Program-made: the position numbers and the translations under genes | In this document: in pieces, positions 3,737-43,666 of the stretch | How the letters are laid out: every line of letters begins with the position of its first letter | Numbering within the stretch: position 1 is the first letter of the stretch | Notes under the pieces: model-generated | The model's input: the letters and a program-made list of their open reading frames with translations, nothing else | Databases searched by the model: none | Told to the model about the DNA's origin: nothing | Assembly (NCBI RefSeq): GCF_901875635.1 | Contig: NZ_CABFMN010000084.1 | Span: forward strand, 1-64,000 | Reading direction: 5' to 3' | Source: Xylophilus ampelinus | Lineage (GTDB): Bacteria > Pseudomonadota > Gammaproteobacteria > Burkholderiales > Burkholderiaceae_C | DNA: 64,000 nt

Positions 3737-4963
3737 CTAACCCAACCAAACCGTCATCGCATGGATGACCAATCCCACCAGCCCACCCACCACCGTCCCG
3801 TTGATCCGGATGAACTGCAGATCCCGCCCGATGTTGCGCTCCACCTCGTCGGTGAGTTCGTCCGTGTCCCAGCCGGCGACGCGCTCCTCGATGTAGCGGC
3901 GGATGTCCTCGCGGTAGCGCTCGATGGCCGCGGGCGCGGCGGCGAGGACCTGCTCGTTGATCCAGCGCTGCATGGCGGCGTCGGCGCCCAGGCGCTCGCC
4001 CAGCGTGGCGGCCAGTGCCGCAACGCGCCGGCGCACGGACGAATCCTCCTTGGCCAGGTCGGCGTCGAGCCAGGCGCGCAGCTGGTCCCACAGGCCCTGC
4101 AGGTAGGCGCCCAGCGCCGGGTGCGCGAGCAGCTCCGCGCGCAGTTGCTCGCCGCGGGCGATGAAGGCCTCGTCGTGCTGCAGCCGGTCGACGAAGCGAT
4201 GCATGAAGTCGTCGAAGCGCAGGCGCAGCGGGTGGGCCGGGTCGGCCGCCGTCTCGCCCAGGGTGCGGGCCACGGCGGCCACGATCTTGCGCGTGGCCAG
4301 GCGCGCGGCCACCTGGTCGAGGCCCACGTAGCGCAGCGCCTTCACCTCGTGGGCGATGGCTTCGGTCAGCTGCTCCTGCAGGGCCTCGTCGTCGAGCAGG
4401 CGCGACACCTGGGCCAGCACGTCGTTGAGCAACTCCTGGTGGCGGCCGTCGGCGGTGAGCGCCTCCAGCACCTGGCCCGAGAGGCGCGACAGGTCGAGCT
4501 GCGCGATGCCGGCGCTCGCCGCGCGCGCCAAGAAGGCCCGCACGCGCTCGTCGTCGAAGGCGCTGAGGCCGTAGCGCAGCACCGACACGGCGTGCGTGCC
4601 GAGCTGGGCAGCGCGCGCCGGCTCGGCCAGCCACAGCGCGAGCCGCCGCGCCGGGTCGAAGGCCTCGAGCTTGGCCAGCACCTGCGGCGTGGCCAGGAAG
4701 TGGTCGCAGATGAAGCGCGCCAGGTTGCGGCCGATGCGCGCCTTGTTGCGCGGCACGATGGCCGTGTGCGGGATCGGCAGGCCCAGCGGATGGCGAAACA
4801 GCGCCACCACGGCGAACCAGTCGGCGATGGCGCCCACCATGGCCGCCTCGGCGAAGGCCGCAAGCCAGCCCCAGGCGGCATGCGGGTGTGCGCGTTGGCC
4901 CCAGTGCGCGGCGATGTAGAGGCCCGCGGCGCCGAGCAGCAGCCCGAGCGCCACACGCTTCAT
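3737..4963 (-). CDS. DUF445 family membrane protein
   Basis: 408 residues from the ATG at 4963. The N-terminal MKRVALGLLLGAAGLYIAAH is a membrane segment. It is followed by FAEAAMVGAIADWFAVVALF and RHPLGLPIPHTAIVPRNKARIG, the signature block of the DUF445 family. The middle is a long helical region. The C-terminus has INGTVVGGLVGLVIHAMTVWLG, a second membrane segment, as is usual. The function of the family is not established; an inner-membrane scaffold facing the periplasm is likely. An in-frame ATG at 5029 would add 22 poorly conserved residues and overlap the upstream deacetylase gene, so the later start, 34 bases after that stop, is preferred. No clear ribosome site supports either choice. 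Confidence 0.8.
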   Translation of the reverse strand: MKRVALGLLLGAAGLYIAAHWGQRAHPHAAWGWLAAFAEAAMVGAIADWFAVVALFRHPLGLPIPHTAIVPRNKARIGRNLARFICDHFLATPQVLAKLEAFDPARRLALWLAEPARAAQLGTHAVSVLRYGLSAFDDERVRAFLARAASAGIAQLDLSRLSGQVLEALTADGRHQELLNDVLAQVSRLLDDEALQEQLTEAIAHEVKALRYVGLDQVAARLATRKIVAAVARTLGETAADPAHPLRLRFDDFMHRFVDRLQHDEAFIARGEQLRAELLAHPALGAYLQGLWDQLRAWLDADLAKEDSSVRRRVAALAATLGERLGADAAMQRWINEQVLAAAPAAIERYREDIRRYIEERVAGWDTDELTDEVERNIGRDLQFIRINGTVVGGLVGLVIHAMTVWLG

Positions 4964-4997
4964 GCCGGCGGCCGGATGGCGCGCCGGTGCAGGGGCC

Positions 4998-6209
4998 TCA
5001 CCCAATCTTCGGGCTGGCCGCGAGGCCATGCATGAAGGCCTCGCAGCGGGCCAGCTGCTCCAGCGTGACGTATTCGTCGGGCTGGTGCGCCTGGGTGATG
5101 CTGCCGGGGCCGCAGACCACGGTGGGGATGCCGGCGTTCTTGAACAGGCCCGCTTCGGTGCCGAAGGCCACCAGCGTGGTGCGCTGCTCGCCCGACAGGC
5201 GCTGGGCCAGCTTGGTCACCGCATCGCCGGCCGAGCCGAGGAAGCTCGGGATCTCGCAGATGGTGTCGAAGGCGATGCCGGTCTCGGGCGCGACTTTCTG
5301 CATGGCCGGCTCCAGGCGCCTGGCATACGCCACCACCTCGGCCTGCATGGCGCGGGCGTCGGCCGTGGGCAGGTCGCGGAACTCGTAGCGGAACTCGGCG
5401 TCGCGCGGCACCACGTTGTCGGCGATGCCGCCGTGGAACTGGCCCACGCTGGCGGTGGAGAAGGGCACGTCGAAGCCGTCGTAGCGCTTCTCCTTGGCCT
5501 CGAAGTTTTCGGCCATGTCGCGCACCTTGCCCACCACGCGGGCGGCCATCTCGATGGCGTTGACCGACTGCGGCGTGAGCGAGGAATGCGCCTCCTTGCC
5601 GCGCACGCAGCAGCGGTAGCGGTACACGCCCTTGTGGGCGATGGCCGGCACCATCAGGGTGGGCTCGCCCACGATGCAGGCCAGCGGCTTGATGCCGGCC
5701 TCGCGCAGGTCGGCGATCAGCTCGCGCACGCCGAAGCAGCCGATCTCCTCCTCGTAGCTGAAGGCGAAATGCACCGCGAAGGGCGCGTCGCTCGCCAGGA
5801 AGCGCTCGGCGTTGGCCAGCGCGACGGCGATGAAACTCTTCATGTCGGCCGAGCCGCGGCCGTACAGCCGCGCCTCGGAATGCTGCACGTCGCCGGCGGG
5901 GTCTTCCTGTGGAAAGTCCTGCACCAGGCCCGACAGCGGGTCCACCGTCCAGGCCTGGCCGTCCCAGGGCACGGTGTCGGTGTGGCCGGAGAGGATGACG
6001 CCAGCCGGTTTGCCCGCGCCCAGCGTGGCGAACAGGTTGGCCTTGGTGCGCTCGGCGTTGTAGGTGATGCGGCTGCGCACGCCCAGGCCGGCCAGGTGGT
6101 CGCGGGCAAACTCGATGAGCTCCAGGTTGCTGCGGTCGCTCACGGTGTTCATGCGCACCAGGGTCTGGGCGAACTCGAGGCTGCGGTCGGAGAGGGTCAG
6201 GCGGGGCAT
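4998..6209 (-). CDS. argE: Acetylornithine deacetylase (ArgE), M20 metallopeptidase
   Basis: 403 residues. A cytoplasmic di-zinc M20 enzyme expected to remove the acetyl group from N-acetylornithine in arginine synthesis. Visible motifs: LSGHTDTVPWDGQAW (first metal His-x-Asp with the ArgE-type PWDGQ), YGRGSADMKSF (bridging Asp), SYEEEIGCFG (Glu-Glu catalytic base and ligand) and a late metal His region in VCGPGSITQAHQPDEY. Length fits ArgE. The reading frame is open upstream to 6446 but the extra residues are low-complexity. MPRLTLSDRSLEF at 6209 is the natural start, with an alternative ATG at 6218. It lies divergent to glpQ with a 121-bp gap and probably in one transcript with the DUF445 gene. 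Confidence 0.82.
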   Translation of the reverse strand: MPRLTLSDRSLEFAQTLVRMNTVSDRSNLELIEFARDHLAGLGVRSRITYNAERTKANLFATLGAGKPAGVILSGHTDTVPWDGQAWTVDPLSGLVQDFPQEDPAGDVQHSEARLYGRGSADMKSFIAVALANAERFLASDAPFAVHFAFSYEEEIGCFGVRELIADLREAGIKPLACIVGEPTLMVPAIAHKGVYRYRCCVRGKEAHSSLTPQSVNAIEMAARVVGKVRDMAENFEAKEKRYDGFDVPFSTASVGQFHGGIADNVVPRDAEFRYEFRDLPTADARAMQAEVVAYARRLEPAMQKVAPETGIAFDTICEIPSFLGSAGDAVTKLAQRLSGEQRTTLVAFGTEAGLFKNAGIPTVVCGPGSITQAHQPDEYVTLEQLARCEAFMHGLAASPKIG

Positions 6210-9952: not shown

Positions 9953-10032
9953 ATGTTGTTCGGCAAGTCGGTCTTGATTTGATGTTGTTGTTGGATTGAA
10001 CGCAGGGGCCGGGATTTCGCCCCGGCGGGCGA

Positions 10033-10637
10033 CCTACTTTTCTTTGTCTCGCCAAAGAAAAGTAGGCAAAAGAAAGGCGCCCCCACTGTTTGCGTCCCTC
10101 CGCTTCGCTGCGGGCAACCTGCGGTGCTCGCGGCTGCGCTCCTCGGCGCACACAGAGGGGGCCCGGGGGACCGGGGTCAACAAGGCTGCTACGCAGCCTT
10201 GTCCTTCGGCTTGGCTTTGCTCCCTCTCCCTTTGGGAGAGGGTTGGGGTGAGGGCACGCAGCCTGGGCACGGCACGCCTCATCCACCGCCCGGTGCCCTC
10301 ACCCCTGCCCTCTCCCAGAGGGAGAGGGAGTAACAGCCAGCCGCGCCGCGGCTCAAGCTGCGCGGGGCCGAGCGAAGCGATGGCCCGACCGAAAGCCCTT
10401 CTGGATGCGCCTGCGACGTGGCGCTGGCGGGGTGGCAGCTGTGCCGCGTGCGGCAACAGCTGCTTCGTCATCTGACTCGCTGCAGCTGTTCGAGCGCAGC
10501 GCGAAGCGCGTAGCGAGTTCTGCAGCGCACCCCGGCAGCGCCGCGGCGCAGGTTGCCCGCAGCGAAGCGAAGGGTCGCAGCCAGCAGGGTCGCCTTTTCT
10601 TTGCCTACTTTCTTTTGGCGAAGCAAAAGAAAGTAGG
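10033..10637. repeat. Composite nested palindrome filling an 800-bp gap
   Basis: The gap 9953-10765 contains no gene. Its outer arms are near-mirror copies: 10033-10120 and 10548-10637 read as reverse complements over about 90 bases with scattered mismatches. Each arm carries its own small hairpin (10033-10066 and 10604-10637, CCTACTTT.../...AAAGTAGG). Inside sits a second inverted pair, a CCCTCTCCC...GGGAGAGGG hairpin at 10222-10242 and again at 10308-10328. Near the right arm is a copy of the approximately 55-bp core at 10474-10527, shared with elements near 37.7, 38.1 and 42.7 kb. No open frame in it resembles a protein. Confidence 0.75.
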
Positions 10638-10707
10638 TGCGCCGCCGGGCGCACATCCCGGCCCCTGCATTTCAACCCTGAGCAAATCCCAAATTCATAA
10701 ACCAAAA

Positions 10708-36010: not shown

Positions 36011-37528
36011 ATGGACTTCAATCTTTTCGCCAACCTGGCCACGGGCTTCGGCGTCGCGGTCACCTGGACCAACCTGCTGTACTGCCTGATCGGCTGCATC
36101 CTGGGCACGCTGATCGGCGTGCTGCCGGGCATCGGCCCGGTCGCGACCATCGCGATGCTGCTGCCTGCGACCTACGCGCTGCCGCCCGTGTCGGCCCTGA
36201 TCATGCTGGCCGGCATCTACTACGGTGCGCAGTACGGCGGATCGACCACCGCCATCCTGGTGAACCTGCCGGGCGAGTCGTCCTCGGTGGTGACGTGCAT
36301 CGACGGCTACCAGATGGCGCGGCAGGGGCGCGCAGGCCCGGCGCTCGCGGCGGCCGGCCTGGGCTCCTTCTTCGCCGGTTGCGTGGGCACCATCATCCTG
36401 GCCGCCTTCGCGCCGCCGCTCACCGAACTGGCCTTCAAGTTCGGCCCGGCCGAGTACTTCAGCCTGATGGTGCTGGGCCTGATCGGCGCGGTGGTGCTGG
36501 CTTCCGGGTCGCTGCTCAAGGCGATCGCGATGGTGGTGCTGGGCCTGCTGCTGGGCCTGGTGGGCACCGACGTGAACTCGGGCGTGGCGCGCTTCAGCTT
36601 CGACATCCCCGAACTGACCGACGGCATCGGCTTCATCGTGATCTCGATGGGCGTGTTCGGCTACGGCGAGATCATCGGCAACCTGTCGCAGCCCGACGAG
36701 GACCGCGAGGTCTTCACCAGCAAGGTGACGGGCCTGTGGCCCACCAAGGAAGATTTCAAGAAGATGGCGCCGGCCGTGCTGCGCGGCACGACGCTGGGCT
36801 CGGCCCTGGGCATCCTGCCCGGCGGCGGCGCGCTGCTGGCCTCCTTCGCGTCCTACGCGCTGGAAAAGAAGCTCAAGATGGGCCCGAACGAAGTCGCCTT
36901 CGGCCGCGGCAACATCCGCGGCGTGGCAGGCCCCGAGTCGGCCAACAACGCCGGCGCGCAGACCTCCTTCATCCCATTGCTGACGCTGGGCATTCCGCCC
37001 AACCCGGTGATGGCGCTGATGGTCGGTGCGATGACCATCCACAACATCCAGCCCGGCCCGCAGGTGATGACCAGCAACCCCGAGCTGTTCTGGGGCCTGA
37101 TCGCCTCGATGTGGCTGGGCAACCTCATGCTGATCGTGCTGAACCTGCCGCTCATCGGCATGTGGATCAAGCTGCTGAAGGTGCCCTACCGCCTGCTGTT
37201 CCCGGCCATCGTGCTGTTCTGCGCGATCGGTGTGTACTCGACCAACAACAACACCTTCGACGTGTGGATGGTCGCGATCTTCGGCTTCATCGGGTACTGC
37301 TTCATCAAGCTGCGTGTCGAGCCGGCGCCGCTGCTGCTGGGCTTCATCCTGGGGCCGATGATGGAAGAGAACCTGCGCCGCGCATTGCTGCTGTCGCGCG
37401 GCAGCTGGAGCGTGCTGGTCACGCGGCCGATCTCGGCCGGCCTGCTGGTCGCCGCGCTGGCGCTGCTGGTGATCGTGCTGCTGCCGGCGGTGAAGTCCAA
37501 GCGGGAAGAGGCTTTCGTCGAGGAGTGA
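36011..37528 (+). CDS. tctA: Tripartite tricarboxylate transporter large permease subunit
   Basis: 505 residues with about 12 membrane segments. Family motifs: GVLPGIGPVATIAMLLP, GIYYGAQYGGSTTAILVNLPGESSSVVTCIDGY, GRGNIRGVAGPESANNAGAQTSFIPLLTLGIPPNPVMAL, and GFILGPMMEENLRRALLLSRG. Main transport subunit of the inner membrane TTT system with TctB and a periplasmic receptor. A hairpin with T-rich tail follows 11 bases after the stop. Confidence 0.93.
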   Translation: MDFNLFANLATGFGVAVTWTNLLYCLIGCILGTLIGVLPGIGPVATIAMLLPATYALPPVSALIMLAGIYYGAQYGGSTTAILVNLPGESSSVVTCIDGYQMARQGRAGPALAAAGLGSFFAGCVGTIILAAFAPPLTELAFKFGPAEYFSLMVLGLIGAVVLASGSLLKAIAMVVLGLLLGLVGTDVNSGVARFSFDIPELTDGIGFIVISMGVFGYGEIIGNLSQPDEDREVFTSKVTGLWPTKEDFKKMAPAVLRGTTLGSALGILPGGGALLASFASYALEKKLKMGPNEVAFGRGNIRGVAGPESANNAGAQTSFIPLLTLGIPPNPVMALMVGAMTIHNIQPGPQVMTSNPELFWGLIASMWLGNLMLIVLNLPLIGMWIKLLKVPYRLLFPAIVLFCAIGVYSTNNNTFDVWMVAIFGFIGYCFIKLRVEPAPLLLGFILGPMMEENLRRALLLSRGSWSVLVTRPISAGLLVAALALLVIVLLPAVKSKREEAFVEE

Positions 37529-37539
37529 CGTTGTATCTT

Positions 37540-37568
37540 GGCGGGCCGTGGTGCCCGCCTGTTCGTTT
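37540..37568 (+). terminator. Terminator of the tctBA unit
   Basis: GGCGGGC (37540-37546), loop CGTGGT, GCCCGCC (37553-37559), then TGTTCGTTT. A 7-bp GC stem and T-rich tail 11 bases after the tctA stop. Confidence 0.6.
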
Positions 37569-37634
37569 CGTGGGTCCCTCTGGGGCCCATTTCCTTTTGG
37601 GCGTTCGCAGATGGCCGTTGAAGCGATGGGCCGG

Positions 37635-37878
37635 CCCTGGTGCCGGTGAGGGCGCGCCGGCGCTTCGGTGGGGTGGTCGGCTTCGCCGACTGCCCTGCGG
37701 TGCTCGCGCGAACGGGCCGCGGCAGAACTCGCTTCGTTCACTGCGTTCACTGCGCTCGGACAGCTGCCGCGAGTCAGTTCACGAAGCGGGCCTGTCCTTC
37801 GGCAGGCCCGCAGCCCGTCCGCGCTGCGCGCCTCGGCACCCCACAGGCGCGCCGCCGCACCCTCACCGGCACCAGGGC
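37635..37878. repeat. Large palindromic element A (244 bp)
   Basis: Ends are perfect 18-bp inverted repeats: CCCTGGTGCCGGTGAGGG at 37635-37652 and its reverse complement at 37861-37878, with further imperfect pairing inward. The middle holds the shared core (37717-37775, reverse orientation) with an internal stem CCGCGGCAG/CTGCCGCG, followed by a module that contains GGCCTGTCCTTCGGCAGGCC. No protein-like frame. Confidence 0.8.
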
Positions 37879-37967
37879 CTGCGTCAGGGGTCGATCGACC
37901 AGCGCAATTCGGGCGCCCGTGGCGGCACAACGCTGCACCTGATGCACCACCACGGCCGCCTCCACGC

Positions 37968-38210
37968 GTCGGCGCCGGGCCCAGGGCGCGTGGGCGACTT
38001 CGGGGTCGGCGAGGCGCGCAGGGTGGACGGGCGGCAGGCCTGCCGAAGGACAGGCCTGCTTCGTGAACTGACTCGCGGCAGCTGTTTGAGCGCAGCGCGA
38101 AGCGCGTAGCGAGTTCTGCCGCGGCCCGTCCGCCCGAGCACCGCAGCGCAGTCGGCCCGCAGGGCCGACCGACCCCGCAGGAGCCCGCGCGCCCTGGGCC
38201 CGGCGCCGAC
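37968..38210. repeat. Large palindromic element B (243 bp)
   Basis: Perfect 23-bp inverted ends (37968-37990 and 38188-38210, GTCGGCGCCGGGCCC... and complement), extending a few bases outward. The core at 38070-38124 is in the opposite orientation to that of element A, which lies 90 bp away. The module GGCCTGCCGAAGGACAGGCC precedes the core. Lies between tctA and the downstream end of the liv operon; convergent genes on both sides. Confidence 0.8.
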
Positions 38211-38271
38211 GCGCGCCCCCTCCCCCGAGTGCGGACGATCCAGCGCCCGCCTCAAGCCGACCGCGCCGGCC

Positions 38272-39438
38272 TCACTGCGCCACGTAGTCCGACACCACCT
38301 TCCACTTGCCGTCGACGATCTGCGACAGGCGCGACTGGTCGTTGCCCAGCCGCTTGGCGGCGGTGTAGGTCATCTTCGGCGCGCCGAACATGTCGGGCGG
38401 AAAGGTGCTCGCGTCCATGATCTTGATGAAGGAATCGGTGCTCAGGTTGGCGCCGGCCTTCTGCGCCACCTGCGCGAAAGTGTCGATGATCACGTAGCCG
38501 TAGACCGAGAACACCGTCGGATCCTCGTTGAACTTGGTCTTGTACTTGTTGGCCCAGAAACGGATCTTGGGGTCGGCCTCGTCGGTGTAGGGGTTCTGCA
38601 CCGTCATGGTCGCGTACATGCCGTCCATGGCCTTGCCGCCCAGCTTGTGGATGAGGTCGGTGTAAGCCGCGCTGGAACCGAGGAAGGTCGGGTTGAAGCC
38701 CGTCTTGCGCGCTTCGCCGATGGTGCCGATGGTCTCTCGGATGATGGTGCCCAGCACCACGAGGTCGCAGCCGGCAGCTTTCATCTTCGCGACCTGCGAG
38801 CTGAAGTCGGTGGCACCGCGCTTGAACGAGGTCTTCTCCGCCAGCTCCATGCCCGCGGCCTTGAGGCCCGCTTCGGCGCCGCGCTGCACCTCCAGGCCGA
38901 ACTCGTCGTCCTGGTAGATGGTGCAGACCTTCTTCGCCCCCTTGTCCTTCACCATCTTGGGCAGCGCCAGGCGGACCTGGTCGTAGTAGGTGGCCGCAAA
39001 CGAGTACTTGAGCCGGTTCAGCGGCTCATACATCTCCCGCGCGGCGGTGATCGGCAGGAAGTTGATGACGTTCTTGTCGAACTGCACCGGCATCGCCGCC
39101 ATGTTCTGCGCCGTACCGATGTGGCCGGCCATGATGAATATCTTGTCCTGGTTGACCAGCTTCTGCGCGGCGAGCACCGCCTTCTTCGGGTCGTAGCCCG
39201 AGTCTTCGACGTACAGCTTGAGCTTGCGGCCGTTGATGCCGCCCTGCTCGTTGATCTCGTCCACGCGCAGCTGCATGCCGTTGCGCGACTGCTTGCCGAA
39301 GCCGGCGAGCGGGCCCGACAGGTCCTGGATGGTGCCGATGCGGATCTCGTCCTTGCTCACGCCCTGCTGGGCGAAGGCGGACGGCAGACCGAGCGCCAGG
39401 ATGGCGATCGCGACGGCGGCGGGGCGGAAGGTCTTCAT
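38272..39438 (-). CDS. Branched-chain-type ABC transporter substrate-binding protein
   Basis: 388 residues. Periplasmic receptor with signal peptide MKTFRPAAVAIAILALGLPSAFA. Type I periplasmic binding fold: IRIGTIQDLSGPLAGFGKQSRNGM, VDEINEQGGINGRKLKLYVEDSGYDPKKAVLAAQKLV, VCTIYQDDEFGLEV, FKRGATDFSSQVAKMKAAGCDLVVLGT. GGAG lies 9 bases before the ATG at 39438. Last gene of the minus-strand livHMGF-fadD unit and probably its receptor. The ligand may be an aromatic or aliphatic acid rather than an amino acid, given the acyl-CoA synthetase next door. Confidence 0.87.
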   Translation of the reverse strand: MKTFRPAAVAIAILALGLPSAFAQQGVSKDEIRIGTIQDLSGPLAGFGKQSRNGMQLRVDEINEQGGINGRKLKLYVEDSGYDPKKAVLAAQKLVNQDKIFIMAGHIGTAQNMAAMPVQFDKNVINFLPITAAREMYEPLNRLKYSFAATYYDQVRLALPKMVKDKGAKKVCTIYQDDEFGLEVQRGAEAGLKAAGMELAEKTSFKRGATDFSSQVAKMKAAGCDLVVLGTIIRETIGTIGEARKTGFNPTFLGSSAAYTDLIHKLGGKAMDGMYATMTVQNPYTDEADPKIRFWANKYKTKFNEDPTVFSVYGYVIIDTFAQVAQKAGANLSTDSFIKIMDASTFPPDMFGAPKMTYTAAKRLGNDQSRLSQIVDGKWKVVSDYVAQ

Positions 39439-39494
39439 GGCTGTCTCCTCTCGTTGATCCATGCGTTCACACAATCTCGGTCCAGAACCCCCAC

Positions 39495-39555
39495 CCGTTC
39501 AGCCTGAGCGGGTCGAAAGCCGGGCGCGAGGCTTCGACGGGCTCAGCCCGAACGG
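39495..39555. repeat. REP-like inverted repeat, second copy
   Basis: Arms CCGTTCAGCCTGAGCGGGTC.. (39495-39517) and ..GACGGGCTCAGCCCGAACGG (39533-39555), of the same GAGCNNGTCGAA family as 17274-17335. Lies between the acyl-CoA synthetase and receptor genes in the liv operon and may attenuate the receptor message. Confidence 0.75.
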
Positions 39556-39571
39556 TGCTGCGGGCACATCG

Positions 39572-41464
39572 TCAAGCGCGGTACATCGCCTCGATCTGCT
39601 GTGCGTACTTCGCCTGCACCAGCTTGCGCTTGAGCTTCATCGTCGGCGTCAGCTCCTCGTCCTCTGCCGACAGCTGCGTGTCGAGCAGGAAGAACTTCTT
39701 GATCTGCTCGACCCGCGCGAATTTCGCGTTCACGCGGTCGATCTCGTTCTGGACCAGGTCCTGCACCTCCTGGGCGCGCGTGAGGCTCGCGTAGTTGCTG
39801 AAGGGCACGTCGTGGTCCTGCGCGAATTTCTCGACGTTCTCCTGGTCGATCATGATGATCACCGTCAGGTAGGGCTTCGCATCGCCGATGACCACTGCAT
39901 CGGTCACGTAGGGGCTGAACTTGAGCTCGTTCTCCCACTCGCTGGGCGTGATGTTCTTGCCGCCCGCCGTGATGATGATGTCCTTCATGCGGTCGGTGAT
40001 GCGGAAATACCCGTCCTCCTCCATCAGCCCGACGTCGCCCGTGTGCAGCCAGCCCTCGGCGTCGATGGTCTCGGCCGTCTTCTCGGGCTGGTTGAGGTAA
40101 CCCATGAACACGTTGGGGCCGCGCACCAGGATCTCGCCCGTGGCCGGGTCGATGCGCACCTCGTTGTAGCCGGCGGCCGGACCGATGGAGCCCGGCTTGA
40201 TGCGCGCCGCCGGCACGCCGGTGGAGGCGCCGCAACTCTCGGTCATGCCCCACACCTCCAGCATGGGCACGCCGAGCGAGAGGTACCACTTGACCAGCTC
40301 GGGCGAGATCGGCGCCGCGCCGGTAACGAGAAAGCGCGCGCGGTGGATGCCGATGAGCTTGCGCACGTTGTCCAGCACCAGCCAGCGCGCGAGCCGGAAG
40401 CGGAACTTCAGGCCGGCATCGACCGGCTCGCCGGCCAGCACCTTGTCGGCGATCTGCCGCCCCACGCCGATGGCCCAGGCGTAGGCGGCCTGCTGCACGC
40501 CGCTGGCTTCATTGAGCGCGATCGTCACGCCGGAGTAGAACTTCTCCCACACGCGCGGCACGGCGGTGAAGACGGTGGGCGCGATCTCGCGCACGTTCTC
40601 CGGCACCGTCTCGGGGTTCTCGACGAAGTTGAGCACCGAGCCGGTGTACATCGCGAAGTACTCGCCGCCCATGCGCTCGGCCACGTGGCACAGCGGCAGG
40701 AAGCACATGCGCTCGTCGCGCTCGTCCTGCGCCACCAGGGTGTTGTAGCCACGCATGGTGTAGACGAGGCCATGGTGCGAGTGCATCGCGCCCTTGGGCT
40801 TGCCGGTGGTGCCCGAGGTGTAGATGAGGATGGCCAGGTCTTCCGGCCGGCAGCCGTCGACGCGCTCGCGCACGGCCTGCGGATGCGACTGCAGGTGCTC
40901 GCGGCCGAGGGCGCGCAGGGCGTCCAGGCTGATGACGCCCGGGTCGTCGAGATCGCGCAGGCCCTCCATGTCGAACACGACGATCTTGCGGAGCGCCGGC
41001 AGGCGCTCACGCACCTCCAGCGCCTTGTCGAGTTGCTCGTCGTCCTCCACGAAGAGCAGCATGGTGTGCGAGTCCTCGCACAGGTAGTGCACCTGCGAGG
41101 CGGCATCGGTCGGGTAGATGCCGTTGGCCACGCCGTTGCAGCTGAGCACGGCCAGGTCGCACAGCACCCATTCGACGACAGTATTCGAAAGGATGGAGGC
41201 GCACTCGCCGCGCGCGAAGCCCAGGGCCAGCAAGCCGGCAGCGATCTCCTGAACGGCTTCGGCCGTCTGGCGCCAGGTCCAGGTGCGCCAGATGCCCAGC
41301 TCCTTCTGGCGCAGCCACACGGCATCGCCGCGCAATTCGACCGCGTTCCAGAACACGGCCGGGATGGTGTCGCCCGGAACTGCGATGTCGGTGCGTGGCT
41401 GGAGCTGGCCGAGGTCCCACAGGCCGGCCGGGATGTGGAGGGGGGCGGAAGTGGATGCGCTCAT
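39572..41464 (-). CDS. Long-chain fatty acid/aryl acyl-CoA synthetase, AMP-forming
   Basis: 630 residues. Activates a carboxylic acid to its CoA thioester with ATP. Motifs: AILIYTSGTTGKPKGAMHSH (P-loop), LPLCHVAERMGGEY, LEVWGMTESCGASTG (A5), EGWLHTGDVGLMEEDGYFRITDRMKDIIITAGGKNITPSEWEN (A7-A8). The length and TESCGASTG region are of the FACL/AMP-binding group with no lid truncation. The ATG overlaps the livF stop by four bases. Position inside an ABC importer operon suggests it traps the imported acid as CoA ester. Confidence 0.88.
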   Translation of the reverse strand: MSASTSAPLHIPAGLWDLGQLQPRTDIAVPGDTIPAVFWNAVELRGDAVWLRQKELGIWRTWTWRQTAEAVQEIAAGLLALGFARGECASILSNTVVEWVLCDLAVLSCNGVANGIYPTDAASQVHYLCEDSHTMLLFVEDDEQLDKALEVRERLPALRKIVVFDMEGLRDLDDPGVISLDALRALGREHLQSHPQAVRERVDGCRPEDLAILIYTSGTTGKPKGAMHSHHGLVYTMRGYNTLVAQDERDERMCFLPLCHVAERMGGEYFAMYTGSVLNFVENPETVPENVREIAPTVFTAVPRVWEKFYSGVTIALNEASGVQQAAYAWAIGVGRQIADKVLAGEPVDAGLKFRFRLARWLVLDNVRKLIGIHRARFLVTGAAPISPELVKWYLSLGVPMLEVWGMTESCGASTGVPAARIKPGSIGPAAGYNEVRIDPATGEILVRGPNVFMGYLNQPEKTAETIDAEGWLHTGDVGLMEEDGYFRITDRMKDIIITAGGKNITPSEWENELKFSPYVTDAVVIGDAKPYLTVIIMIDQENVEKFAQDHDVPFSNYASLTRAQEVQDLVQNEIDRVNAKFARVEQIKKFFLLDTQLSAEDEELTPTMKLKRKLVQAKYAQQIEAMYRA

Positions 41465-42234
41465 CGCCAGGTCTTCTTCTTTTTCCAGCGGCGCTCGCCG
41501 CGGACGCCCTCGTCCTGCAGGCCGAGGTAGAACTCCTTGATGTCGTCCTTCTCGCGCAGGCGCTCGCAGGTGTCTTCCATGACGATGCGGCCGTTCTCCA
41601 GCACGTAGCCGTAGTCGGCGGCGTTGAGCGCCATGTTGGCGTTCTGTTCGACCAGCAGGATGGTGGTGCCGCGCTCACGGTTGATGCGCACGACGATCTC
41701 GAAGATCTCCTTGGTGAGCTTGGGCGAGAGGCCGAGCGAGGGTTCGTCGAGCAGGATGAGCTGCGGCGCGGCCATGATGGCGCGCGAGATGGCGAGCATC
41801 TGCTGCTGCCCGCCCGAGAGCAGGCCCGCGTCCTGCGCGGCGCGCTCGCGCAGGATGGGGAAGTAGCCGAACACGGTCTCGATGTCGCGCGCCACGCCGT
41901 CGCGGTCGCGGCGGGTGTAGGCGCCCATGAGCAGGTTGTCCTTCACCGACAGCAGCGGGAACACCTCGCGGCCCTCGGGCACGTGCGACAGGCCCTGCTG
42001 CACGATGAAGGCCGGGTCCTTGGCAGTGATGTCCTGGCCCTTGAAATGGACCGTGCCCTTGCGCGGATCGATGATGCCCGAGATGGTCTTGAGGATCGTC
42101 GTCTTGCCCGCGCCGTTGCTGCCCAGCACGGTGGCGATCTCGCCCTGCCGCACCCTCAGGCTCACGCCGCGGATGGCCTTGATGGGGCCGTAGGCGCTCT
42201 CGACGTTGAGGAGTTGGAGGACTTCGGTGCTCAT
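41461..42234 (-). CDS. livF: Branched-chain ABC transporter ATP-binding protein LivF
   Basis: 257 residues. Walker A LGSNGAGKTTILKT, Q-loop VQQGLSHVPEGREVFPLLSV, signature LLSGGQQQMLAISRAI, Walker B LILLDEPSLGLSP, H-loop LLVEQNANMAL. The VPEGREVFPLLSVKDNLLMGA block is characteristic of LivF. C-terminal basic end RRWKKKKTWR. Separated from livG by a 619-bp gap filled with two palindromic elements, though they should be in one operon. Confidence 0.9.
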   Translation of the reverse strand: MSTEVLQLLNVESAYGPIKAIRGVSLRVRQGEIATVLGSNGAGKTTILKTISGIIDPRKGTVHFKGQDITAKDPAFIVQQGLSHVPEGREVFPLLSVKDNLLMGAYTRRDRDGVARDIETVFGYFPILRERAAQDAGLLSGGQQQMLAISRAIMAAPQLILLDEPSLGLSPKLTKEIFEIVVRINRERGTTILLVEQNANMALNAADYGYVLENGRIVMEDTCERLREKDDIKEFYLGLQDEGVRGERRWKKKKTWR

Positions 42235-42325
42235 GTCTGAGCGCCTTCCGACGAGTCGCATGAGGGGCGCGCCGGCGCGGGGCGGCCTGACGTCGGCGAG
42301 TCGGCATGCAGTCGAGCGCGCCGCT

Positions 42326-42504
42326 GGCGAGGGGCAGGCACCGACTCGCTCAGACGCCGCGGGTCGCTGCGCGACTTCCCCGCGCTGCTCGCGGCAGGCG
42401 GGGTCCGCGCAAACTCGCTTCGCTCAAACATGCGCGGCCCTCTTCCCGCCTGCCGCTGCGCTGCTCGGCCGCGCCGATTCGCGATCCGGCGCCTGCCCCT
42501 CGCC
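42326..42504. repeat. Palindromic element C (179 bp) inside liv operon
   Basis: Inverted ends GGCGAGGGGCAGGCACC (42326-42342) and its complement at 42488-42504, one mismatch in 17. The middle carries nested arms (CTCGCGGCAGGCGGG / CCCGCCTGCCGC) and a short core GCGCAAACTCGCTTCGCTCAAACA, a relative of the larger core in elements A, B and D. Confidence 0.7.
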
Positions 42505-42563
42505 ATCGTGGAACCGGGGTGCCGCATCCCCTCTCTTTCACGCCCTGCGGTGCGAGGACGGGG

Positions 42564-42844
42564 TTCGGCCGCCGGTGGAGCCCGGTGCGTGGTGCGGGCC
42601 GGGCACGCCCCTGTGCGTCGCCGAGAAGCGCAGGCCGGGGCGAGGCACGCCTGCCGAAGGACAGGCGTGCTTCGTGCACTGACTCGTCGCAGCTGTTTGA
42701 GCGGAGTGAACGAAGTGAACGCAGCGAGTTCTGCGACGCGAGCCCCGGCCGAGCATCGCAGGGAAGCCCCCGAAGGGGGCCGACGCACCGGGGCGTGCCC
42801 GGCCCGCGCCGCGCACCGGGCGGCCCTTCCAACGCACGGCCGAA
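42564..42844. repeat. Large palindromic element D (about 280 bp) inside liv operon
   Basis: Arms 42581-42620 and 42781-42820 match as reverse complements at 37 of 40 positions. A further TTCGGCCG/CGGCCGAA pair lies outside. Core at 42681-42738, preceded by CGCCTGCCGAAGGACAGGCG. The element ends about 10 bases before the livG stop. Lies downstream of livG and upstream of livF in the direction of transcription. Confidence 0.8.
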
Positions 42845-42853
42845 AGCCCGTTG

Positions 42854-43666
42854 TCATGCCGCCCTCCGCAAGCTGCTCACATCCTCGACCGTCCCCAGGT
42901 AGGCCTCGACCACCTTCGGATCCGACTGCACCTCGCGCGACGACCCCGTGGCCAGCACCTCGCCCTGGTTCATCGCCAGCACGCGGTCCGACACCTTCGA
43001 CACCAGCGTCATGTCGTGCTCCACCATCAGCACCGAAATGCCCAGCTCGTGCTGGATGTCCTGGATCCAGAAGGCCATGTCGGCCGTCTCCTCCACGTTC
43101 AGGCCAGAGGATGGTTCATCGAGCAGCAGCAGCTTGGGCTCGGTGCACAACGCCCGCGCCAGCTCCACCACCTTGCGCACGCCGTAGGGCAGCCCCGCCA
43201 CCAGCGAATCGCGGTGGTGCTGCAGGTCGAGCAGGTCGATCACCTGCTCGGCCTTCTCGCGCGCGGCGATCTCGGCGCGCCGCGTGGCGGCGGTGAAGAA
43301 CAGCTCGCCGAAGAAACCCGTCGCGCGGTGCGTGTGGCGGCCGATCAGCAGGTTGTGCAGCACCGTCGCGTGCTCGAACAGCTCGATGTTCTGGAAGGTG
43401 CGCGCGATGCCCAGCGCCGCGATGGCGTGCGGCGGCTGGTCCGTGAGCTTGAGCGGCGCGGCTTCGCCGTGCCAGGTGATCTGCCCCGTGGTCGGCTGGT
43501 AGATGCGGCTGATGAGGTTGAACACCGTCGTCTTGCCCGCACCGTTGGGCCCGATCAGCGTGAAGACCTCGCCGCGCCGCACCTCGAAGCTCACCTTGTT
43601 CACGGCCAGCACGCCGCCGAAGCGCACGCTCAGGTCCTGGGCCGAGAGGAGGACGTCCCTGGTCAC
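42854..43666 (-). CDS. livG: Branched-chain ABC transporter ATP-binding protein LivG
   Basis: 270 residues from a GTG at 43666 overlapping the livM stop (GTGA). Walker [24 protein letters not shown], signature [15 protein letters not shown] (LivG-type), Walker [18 protein letters not shown]-loop [23 protein letters not shown]. Also [24 protein letters not shown], typical of LivG. Confidence 0.9.

What the first reader, a model, noticed from the sequence alone, without database searches (positions are those of the whole stretch)
37635..42844. A family of large palindromic elements sharing one core but with unrelated arms
Elements at 37635-37878, 37968-38210 and 42564-42844, plus the block at 10033-10637, each contain a core of about 55 bp. 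One side begins GACTCG(C/T)(G/C/T)GCAGCTGTT and the other ends GCGAGTTCTG(C)GCG, itself a stem-loop. In three of them a GGCCTGCCGAAGGACAGGCC-like module sits beside it. The outer arms (18, 23 and about 40 bp) are nearly perfect inverted repeats but differ in sequence between elements. A conserved centre with fast-changing but always paired arms suggests selection for the fold, or spread by a mechanism that copies the core and then builds arms. I do not know a named family with this layout.
Basis: partly seen in the sequence, partly recalled or inferred. Interest (0 to 1): 0.75.

Follow-up and report, generated by a model that had tools for sequence, protein, structure and literature searches.

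The report
Giant paired hairpin elements, strand-specific fold
Between bacterial genes sit pairs of large, intricately folded DNA palindromes whose letters change while the fold is kept; they spread like tiny mobile elements and look built to fold as one single DNA (or RNA) strand, by a mechanism not yet known.

Summary
The elements are real and larger than described. Three in the window have outer arms of 41-46 nt around a constant ~160-nt interior. They are halves of units: [type-A half]-spacer-[type-B half], pointing outward. Of 42 neighbouring core pairs in the genus all 42 are outward; 38 are clearly A+B, none A+A or B+B. A covariance model matches 79 of 150 family genomes; Rfam has no match. 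Compensatory change is strong in the core (26 of 38 pairs) and, at one orthologous site, in the arms (18 of 40). In the arms G.T is tolerated and A.C is not (58 vs 5 events), even where that strand is antisense to both flanking genes. The commonest hairpin tip is the GNA triloop, a known stable DNA minihairpin; GNRA is rare. Near-identical A halves, arms included, lie at six non-orthologous sites of one genome. Best reading: giant REPIN-like non-autonomous mobile doublets recognised as folded single strands, probably ssDNA. A RAYT driver was tested and not supported. The enzyme and any benefit to the host are unknown.

The parts
37630..37882 (-). E1, type-A half; outer arms 37630-37675 and 37837-37882, core GACTCG reads leftward from 37775
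   Evidence: CM R1 171.4 bits; fold z -10.1
37883..37964 (.). spacer between E1 and E2 (82 bp); both left arms face it
   Evidence: sequence
37965..38213 (+). E2, type-B half; arms 37965-38009 and 38169-38213, core GACTCG at 38070
   Evidence: CM R1 167.1 bits; fold z -13.0
42580..42821 (+). E3, type-A half between livG-like and livF-like genes; arms 42580-42620 and 42781-42821, core at 42681
   Evidence: CM R1 173.1 bits; fold z -11.8; orthologous series A5
42322..42508 (-). short inverted partner of E3 (limits approximate, from the predicted fold)
   Evidence: CM R1 hit 42354-42468, 39.7 bits; folds
10410..10573 (+). E4 core element of the divergent subclass; core at 10474; 25-nt arms 10410-10434 and 10528-10552; right-hand limit is the CM match end
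   Evidence: CM R1 10416-10573, 109.3 bits; arms 22 of 25 complementary; similar arms in L120, L124, L154. The automatic arm scan missed it in the window
10097..10146 (-). degenerate inverted partner of E4
   Evidence: CM R1 19.9 bits, E 0.014: weak on its own; same layout with about 38-42 bits in relatives L120, L123, L163 and others
9999..10671 (.). whole E4 block: 125-nt arms 82% complementary, ends in CCTACTTTTCTTTG...CAAAAGAAAGTAGG hairpins
37570..37590 (+). intrinsic-terminator-like hairpin between the tctA-like stop codon and E1, so the unit lies beyond a likely terminator
   Evidence: 3 sites found in the region, shuffles 0.5

Best explanation
The unit is a non-autonomous mobile doublet of two different giant hairpins (types A and B, ~240-250 nt each) in inverted order, with the working strand of each half pointing outward from the spacer. 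Shown here by computation: the pair layout, the covarying multibranched fold, strand-specific G.T tolerance, the excess of GNA-triloop tips on the same strand, dispersal of near-identical copies within a genome, and retention of one site in the window's genus and in part of Variovorax. Inferred: when DNA is single-stranded (replication, repair or uptake) the outward strand of each half folds, an unidentified trans-acting enzyme recognises conserved unpaired motifs (CGAGNANCGCAG junctions, CTGACTCG, TGTYYGARCG/AGYGAGTT) held at fixed distances by stems of free sequence, and copies the unit elsewhere, as REPINs are thought to be copied by RAYTs. Copies survive mainly downstream of genes. ssDNA is favoured over RNA by the GNA tips; that choice is an inference.
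For: Inverted A/B doublets: 42 outward, 0 inward, 0 same-strand neighbours within 1 kb among 120 cores; outward in 28 of the 29 loci with hits on both strands among 45 searched, most from other genera. Covariation: A1 26 of 38 pairs, score 0.446 vs 0.161 shuffled; arms of 11 orthologues at the livG-livF site 18 of 40, 0.350 vs 0.169, 95.4% of cells paired; 0 of 500 shuffles reach either score. Wobble, outer 27 bp, G.T:A.C 42:2 (A), 52:4 (B), 10:2 (untyped); 58:5 over 20 arm clusters, 17:0 where the core strand is antisense to both called genes; 33:0 in the orthologous series; 21:7 in other genera. Tips: 205 GNA of 469 loops, 4 TNC, 3 GNRA (RNA parameters), 204 of 503, 4 and 0 (DNA parameters), in 120 elements; stem scan 107:6 with 0 GNRA, against 38:46 with 18 GNRA in 322 kb outside. 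GNA loops with G-C stems are extraordinarily stable DNA minihairpins (PMC4686876, passages). Mobility: six sites in G005, 92-99% identical, versus 88-98% between orthologues; shared outer ends, then unique flanks.
Against: No enzyme found: Y1_Tnp is not associated (57 of 79 carriers vs 55 of 71 other genomes, p 0.57); Y2_Tnp in 3 of 15 and RVT_1 in 11 of 15 genus genomes. No consistent target-site duplication in 40 pairs. Tolerance of G.T is also what RNA selection predicts. GNA tips are under half of all predicted loops, and the elements are related, so counts are not independent. Copy numbers are modest (10-34 exact-pattern matches in the 17 genomes with at least 10) and long-kept sites suggest host retention. 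The asymmetry is weaker outside the genus (30 of 48 elements usable). No transcript or ssDNA data exist here.
Confidence: 0.52

Rival explanations
1. The halves are structured RNAs transcribed outward from the spacer (or a cis-acting RNA element), and the doublet is a two-RNA locus that has been duplicated.
For: G.T tolerated and A.C not on the outward strand; complex covarying fold with conserved unpaired motifs, typical of structured RNA.
Against: No sigma-70-like promoter in 37480-38320 or 42200-42900 (other promoter types not covered); spacers can be as short as 34 bp; GNA triloops common and GNRA tetraloops rare or absent, the reverse of the usual RNA preference (recalled); no Rfam match.
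Confidence: 0.25
2. 3'-UTR elements of the neighbouring genes: terminators, RNase sites or mRNA stabilisers, as proposed for REP and NEMIS.
For: Only 1 of 42 genus pairs and 2 of 25 other-genus loci with both flanks called lie between divergent genes.
Against: The conserved strand of each half is antisense to the adjoining gene when that gene reads towards the unit, and the asymmetry persists (17:0) where it is antisense to both genes; no terminator-like site has an element arm as its stem; a separate terminator-like hairpin precedes E1.
Confidence: 0.1
3. No selection on the fold: arms are kept paired by DNA-level quasi-palindrome correction (template switching), and the repeats are relics.
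For: Long palindromes are prone to such correction (recalled); one A half has collapsed to a remnant in L231 and only a remnant is left in L234.
Against: Correction cannot tell G.T from A.C, yet the counts are 58:5 and 33:0; conserved unpaired motifs, fixed distances and A/B asymmetry are unexplained; at columns 17, 24, 31 and 42 of A5 the states are C-G, U-G and U-A.
Confidence: 0.08

Closest known systems
REPINs / BIMEs mobilised by RAYT transposases (Bertels and Rainey 2011, PMC3116915; passages read)
   Same: Inverted doublet as the unit of spread, extragenic, compensatory changes in stems, predicted hairpin in ssDNA or mRNA.
   Different: Each half here is ~240-250 nt, multibranched and of two distinct types, not a short REP; spacer 34-360 bp in the genus; Y1_Tnp absent from 22 of 79 carrier genomes and from G003, which has two copies.
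BRE, Beta-proteobacterial repeat element (Hot et al. 2011, PMC3110155; section 14 read)
   Same: Repeat of Comamonadaceae and Alcaligenaceae, usually intergenic.
Bor repeats (Petrillo et al. 2006, PMC1590033; passages read)
   Same: Short stem-loop repeats of a betaproteobacterium (Bordetella), close to coding regions.
   Different: 26-30 bp, with some REP-like similarity; no large paired layout in the passages seen.
Folded-ssDNA signals such as Frpo promoters, single-strand origins and N4 promoters (recalled; one search gave only a search listing)
   Same: Function through a strand-specific fold of ssDNA (recalled).
   Different: Those I recall are on plasmids or phages; here the copies are chromosomal as far as seen and in inverted pairs. 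No such function is shown.

Membership tests
REPIN / BIME with RAYT | inverted doublet as dispersing unit | tested here: met
   42 outward and no other close neighbours among 120 cores; 38 of 42 A+B by motif, 4 with one half untyped; dispersal of A halves in G005; shared outer ends of A and B copies
REPIN / BIME with RAYT | each half a short palindrome of about 20-40 bp (REP size as in the abstract of PMC3733652, listing) | tested here: not met
   three window elements 242-253 bp, arms 41-46 nt
REPIN / BIME with RAYT | cognate Y1 transposase in carrier genomes | tested here: not met
   57 of 79 carriers vs 55 of 71 non-carriers, p 0.57; 6 of 17 genomes with at least 10 pattern matches lack any Y1_Tnp. 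PF01797 also covers IS200-type enzymes, and weak R1 matches may be missed
REPIN / BIME with RAYT | GTAG or CGTC tag at the hairpin foot | not tested
   no scan made
MITE | target-site duplication | tested here: not met
   40 pairs scanned for a direct repeat of 4-15 nt within 14 nt of the arms; scattered matches of 4-6 nt in some, none at a constant place; true ends uncertain by a few bases
MITE | terminal inverted repeats shared with a parent IS | tested here: inconclusive
   outer ends differ between A (GGACCAYCG) and B (CRCCCC) by eye; no transposase among the 25 commonest of 170 Pfam families in 102 neighbouring proteins; the other 145 families were not shown
Rfam families | match to a curated covariance model | tested here: not met
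   0 at gathering over the window; 0 at E up to 1 over 37550-38260
Intrinsic terminator | T-tract after the stem | tested here: not met
   four terminator-like sites in the two regions, none with an element arm as stem
BRE | sequence identity to the published ~90-bp consensus | not testable with these tools
   sequence only in a figure and supplement

The most novel reading that the evidence does not exclude
A family-wide class of chromosomally encoded structured single-stranded DNA: a folded-ssDNA element with a conserved core, GNA-capped arms and free-sequence struts, kept at some sites in Burkholderiaceae because the fold does something for the cell (for example ssDNA-dependent priming or transcription, or marking incoming DNA), rather than only for its own spread.
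Probability: 0.2. Interest if true: 0.9.

Novelty: new variant of a known kind. Interest (0 to 1): 0.72.

Why it matters
If right, bacterial chromosomes carry a large, so far unlisted family of elements that work as complex folded single strands, with RNA-like covariation but DNA-type loops. It offers a test bed for structured ssDNA in vivo, points to an unknown enzyme that moves or reads such folds, and adds a model that could annotate many intergenic regions. The strand tests used here (G.T versus A.C, GNA versus GNRA) may help separate ssDNA from RNA selection elsewhere.

Tried and rejected
RAYT as driver: in the genus Y1_Tnp seemed to match element presence exactly (14 of 15), but across 150 family genomes there is no association, and G003, 'element-free' by pattern, has two copies by covariance model, so the concordance came partly from my pattern. 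Y2_Tnp and RVT_1 do not track the elements. Neighbouring genes: among the 25 commonest of 170 Pfam families in 102 proteins there is no transposase; transport, LysR and metabolic families dominate; PADLOC hits were seen only as a list. Gene calls show nothing coding-like inside any of the 42 pairs. Plasmids: one partial match in 72,556 records. Empty sites: at the L139 site G006 keeps a remnant and G002, G007 and G009 have none, but no clean insertion boundary resulted; the L183 site was fetched and its flanks placed but not read further. First arm count (G.T 92: A.C 29) included conserved internal-loop positions and was replaced by outer-27-bp counts. In one search, 18 of 48 elements were dropped because no arm was found.

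Mended on checking: my first 'orthologous' arm alignment A3 held three rows (L142, L187, L194) from a paralogous liv operon (37% identity to the window's livF). They were removed; A5 (11 rows) replaces it (18 of 40 instead of 22 of 40 pairs; score 0.350 instead of 0.351). In A3 the count of further pair types did not exceed shuffles (166 of 500 as high); in A5 1 of 500 was as high. The E4 right arm was first placed 4 nt off (one search shows the failed check) and is corrected.
Full report
What is there. In the window, E1 (37630-37882, core on the minus strand), E2 (37965-38213, plus) and E3 (42580-42821, plus) have outer arms of 41-46 nt, 87-93% complementary, set 159-161 nt apart. The predicted folds broadly follow this plan, with z-scores of -10.1, -13.0 and -11.8. 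The block at 9999-10671 is a divergent subclass with 25-nt inner arms.

Relatives. The window's own assembly is not held. A degenerate core pattern gave hits in 14 of 15 genus genomes, 4-14 each, with 0 for the reversed control. The covariance model R1, built from 27 sequences including the three window elements, later found two copies in the fifteenth genome, G003. R1 matched at E<=1e-4 in 79 of 150 family genomes (72 of 141 genera), with 19 candidates scored per genome, so counts are floors, and in 12 of 185 genomes drawn from the class, two of them of the window's family. An exact core pattern hit 51 of 150, 0 in the control. Contig lengths tie G002 to Xenophilus aerolatus DSM 19424, G005 to Pseudacidovorax intermedius DSM 21352 and G009 to Comamonadaceae bacterium ALPHA2B.

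Pairs. I fetched 80 regions and, with the window, found 120 cores (cores within 330-400 nt of a contig end were left out). Neighbouring cores within 1 kb: 42 outward, 0 inward, 0 on the same strand. By inner-stem motif 38 of the 42 are one A (..CCTGTG../..GAAGC) plus one B (GATTT../..ATGAGC), in 4 one half is untyped, none is A+A or B+B. Many of the 42 are orthologous to one another. Many cores without a long partner have a shorter inverted one, E3 among them; G003's two copies showed none. In 45 further loci, most from other genera and some from other families, 29 have hits on both strands: 28 outward, L228 inward.

Context. Of the 42 pairs, 14 lie between convergent, 27 between co-directional and 1 between divergent genes (my simple codon-usage gene calls). 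In 27 other-genus loci, 25 with both flanks called, 2 are divergent. E1/E2 lie between tctA-like and livK-like genes, E3 between livG-like and livF-like genes (these names are my reading of the translations).

Selection on the fold. In A1 26 of 38 pairs show two-sided change; the covariation score of 0.446 compares with 0.161 in shuffles and at most 0.078 when slid. For the arms I used the livG-livF site, with livG, livF and the AMP-ligase gene checked for synteny in the genus loci: five genus genomes, the window included, and six Variovorax give 18 of 40 arm pairs with two-sided change, score 0.350 vs 0.169, 95.4% of cells paired against at most 46.7% when slid. The site is not universal: R1 hits it in 8 of 17 Variovorax loci, in none of 34 loci of other genera searched, and not in the P. 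intermedius locus L046.

Strand. In the outer 27 bp of the arms, read on the core strand, G.T:A.C is 42:2 for A, 52:4 for B and 10:2 for untyped halves; by arm cluster and position it is 58:5. It is 17:0 where the core strand is antisense to both flanking called genes, 25:1 where it is sense, 24:2 between convergent genes, and 33:0 in the orthologous series. The core alignment gives 28:8 and other genera 21:7. Deamination or replication asymmetry along one chromosomal strand would affect A and B oppositely, so it does not explain this.

DNA or RNA. In the predicted folds of 120 elements, GNA triloops are the commonest tip: 205 of 469 loops with RNA parameters (4 TNC, 3 GNRA) and 204 of 503 with DNA parameters (4 TNC, 0 GNRA); most are C[GAA]G (111) or C[GCA]G (84). 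In 75 other matches GNA is also the commonest class (68 or 77) with 5 GNRA. A stem scan without energies gives GNA 107, TNC 6, GNRA 0 inside elements, and 38, 46, 18 in 322 kb outside. GNA loops closed by G-C pairs form extraordinarily stable, nuclease-resistant DNA minihairpins (PMC4686876, passages). The elements are related to one another, so these counts are not independent trials. I take this as favouring ssDNA, not as proof.

Spread. In G005 six A halves at non-orthologous sites are 91.6-98.8% identical, arms included, while orthologues at the tctA-livK site are 88.0-97.6%. Copies share outer ends (A GGACCAYCG, B CRCCCC) and then diverge (by eye). No consistent target-site duplication appears. 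Loss is seen too: one A half has collapsed to a remnant in L231, only a remnant is left in L234, and L235-L237 (G002, G007, G009) have no element at that site.

Driver. RAYT-type, IS91-type and reverse-transcriptase families do not track the elements. No coding-like frame lies inside the 42 pairs, and no transposase is among the commonest families beside them.

Print record. Searches for layout, taxon and sequence terms found no description of this element; the library lacks most subscription papers. Two REP surveys, searched inside for the main genera, do not name them. 'Burkholderiales-1', listed in a 2010 survey of structured RNAs with no Rfam number shown (PMC2864571, passages), could not be compared.

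Noticed in passing
window 10207-10343: A separate palindrome CTCCCTCTCCC...GGGAGAGGGAG (51-nt arms, 84%) sits inside the spacer of the E4 pair; the same kind of repeat and a GTTCGGGCTGAGCCTGTCGAAGCC repeat occur in spacers of several units in relatives, so spacers seem to collect other repeats.
   Followed up: no
window 10033-10066 and 10604-10637: Perfect 14-bp hairpins CCTACTTTTCTTTG/CAAAGAAAAGTAGG and CCTACTTTCTTTTG/CAAAAGAAAGTAGG at the two ends of the E4 block; similar hairpins flank matches in another family (L270).
   Followed up: partly
L231 and L234: At the L139 site one relative has the A half collapsed to a remnant with B intact, another keeps only part of an A arm: palindrome deletion in progress.
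   Followed up: partly
L228 1120-1655: The only inward-facing pair seen, called as lying between divergent genes.
   Followed up: no
L015-L020 around 4700-5160: Several Variovorax carry short/short pairs at the livG-livF site where the window has long/short: modules P3 and P5 seem to be gained or lost inside P2.
   Followed up: partly
L142, L187, L194 (genomes G005, G012, G013): A long A/B pair sits between the two ATPase genes of a different, paralogous liv operon (37% identity), the same position in the operon as E3 in the window: independent placement or an old shared site.
   Followed up: no
G003:C1:499371-499537 and G003:C9:46604-46769: Two strong copies without a detectable partner within about 1.5 kb.
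   Followed up: partly
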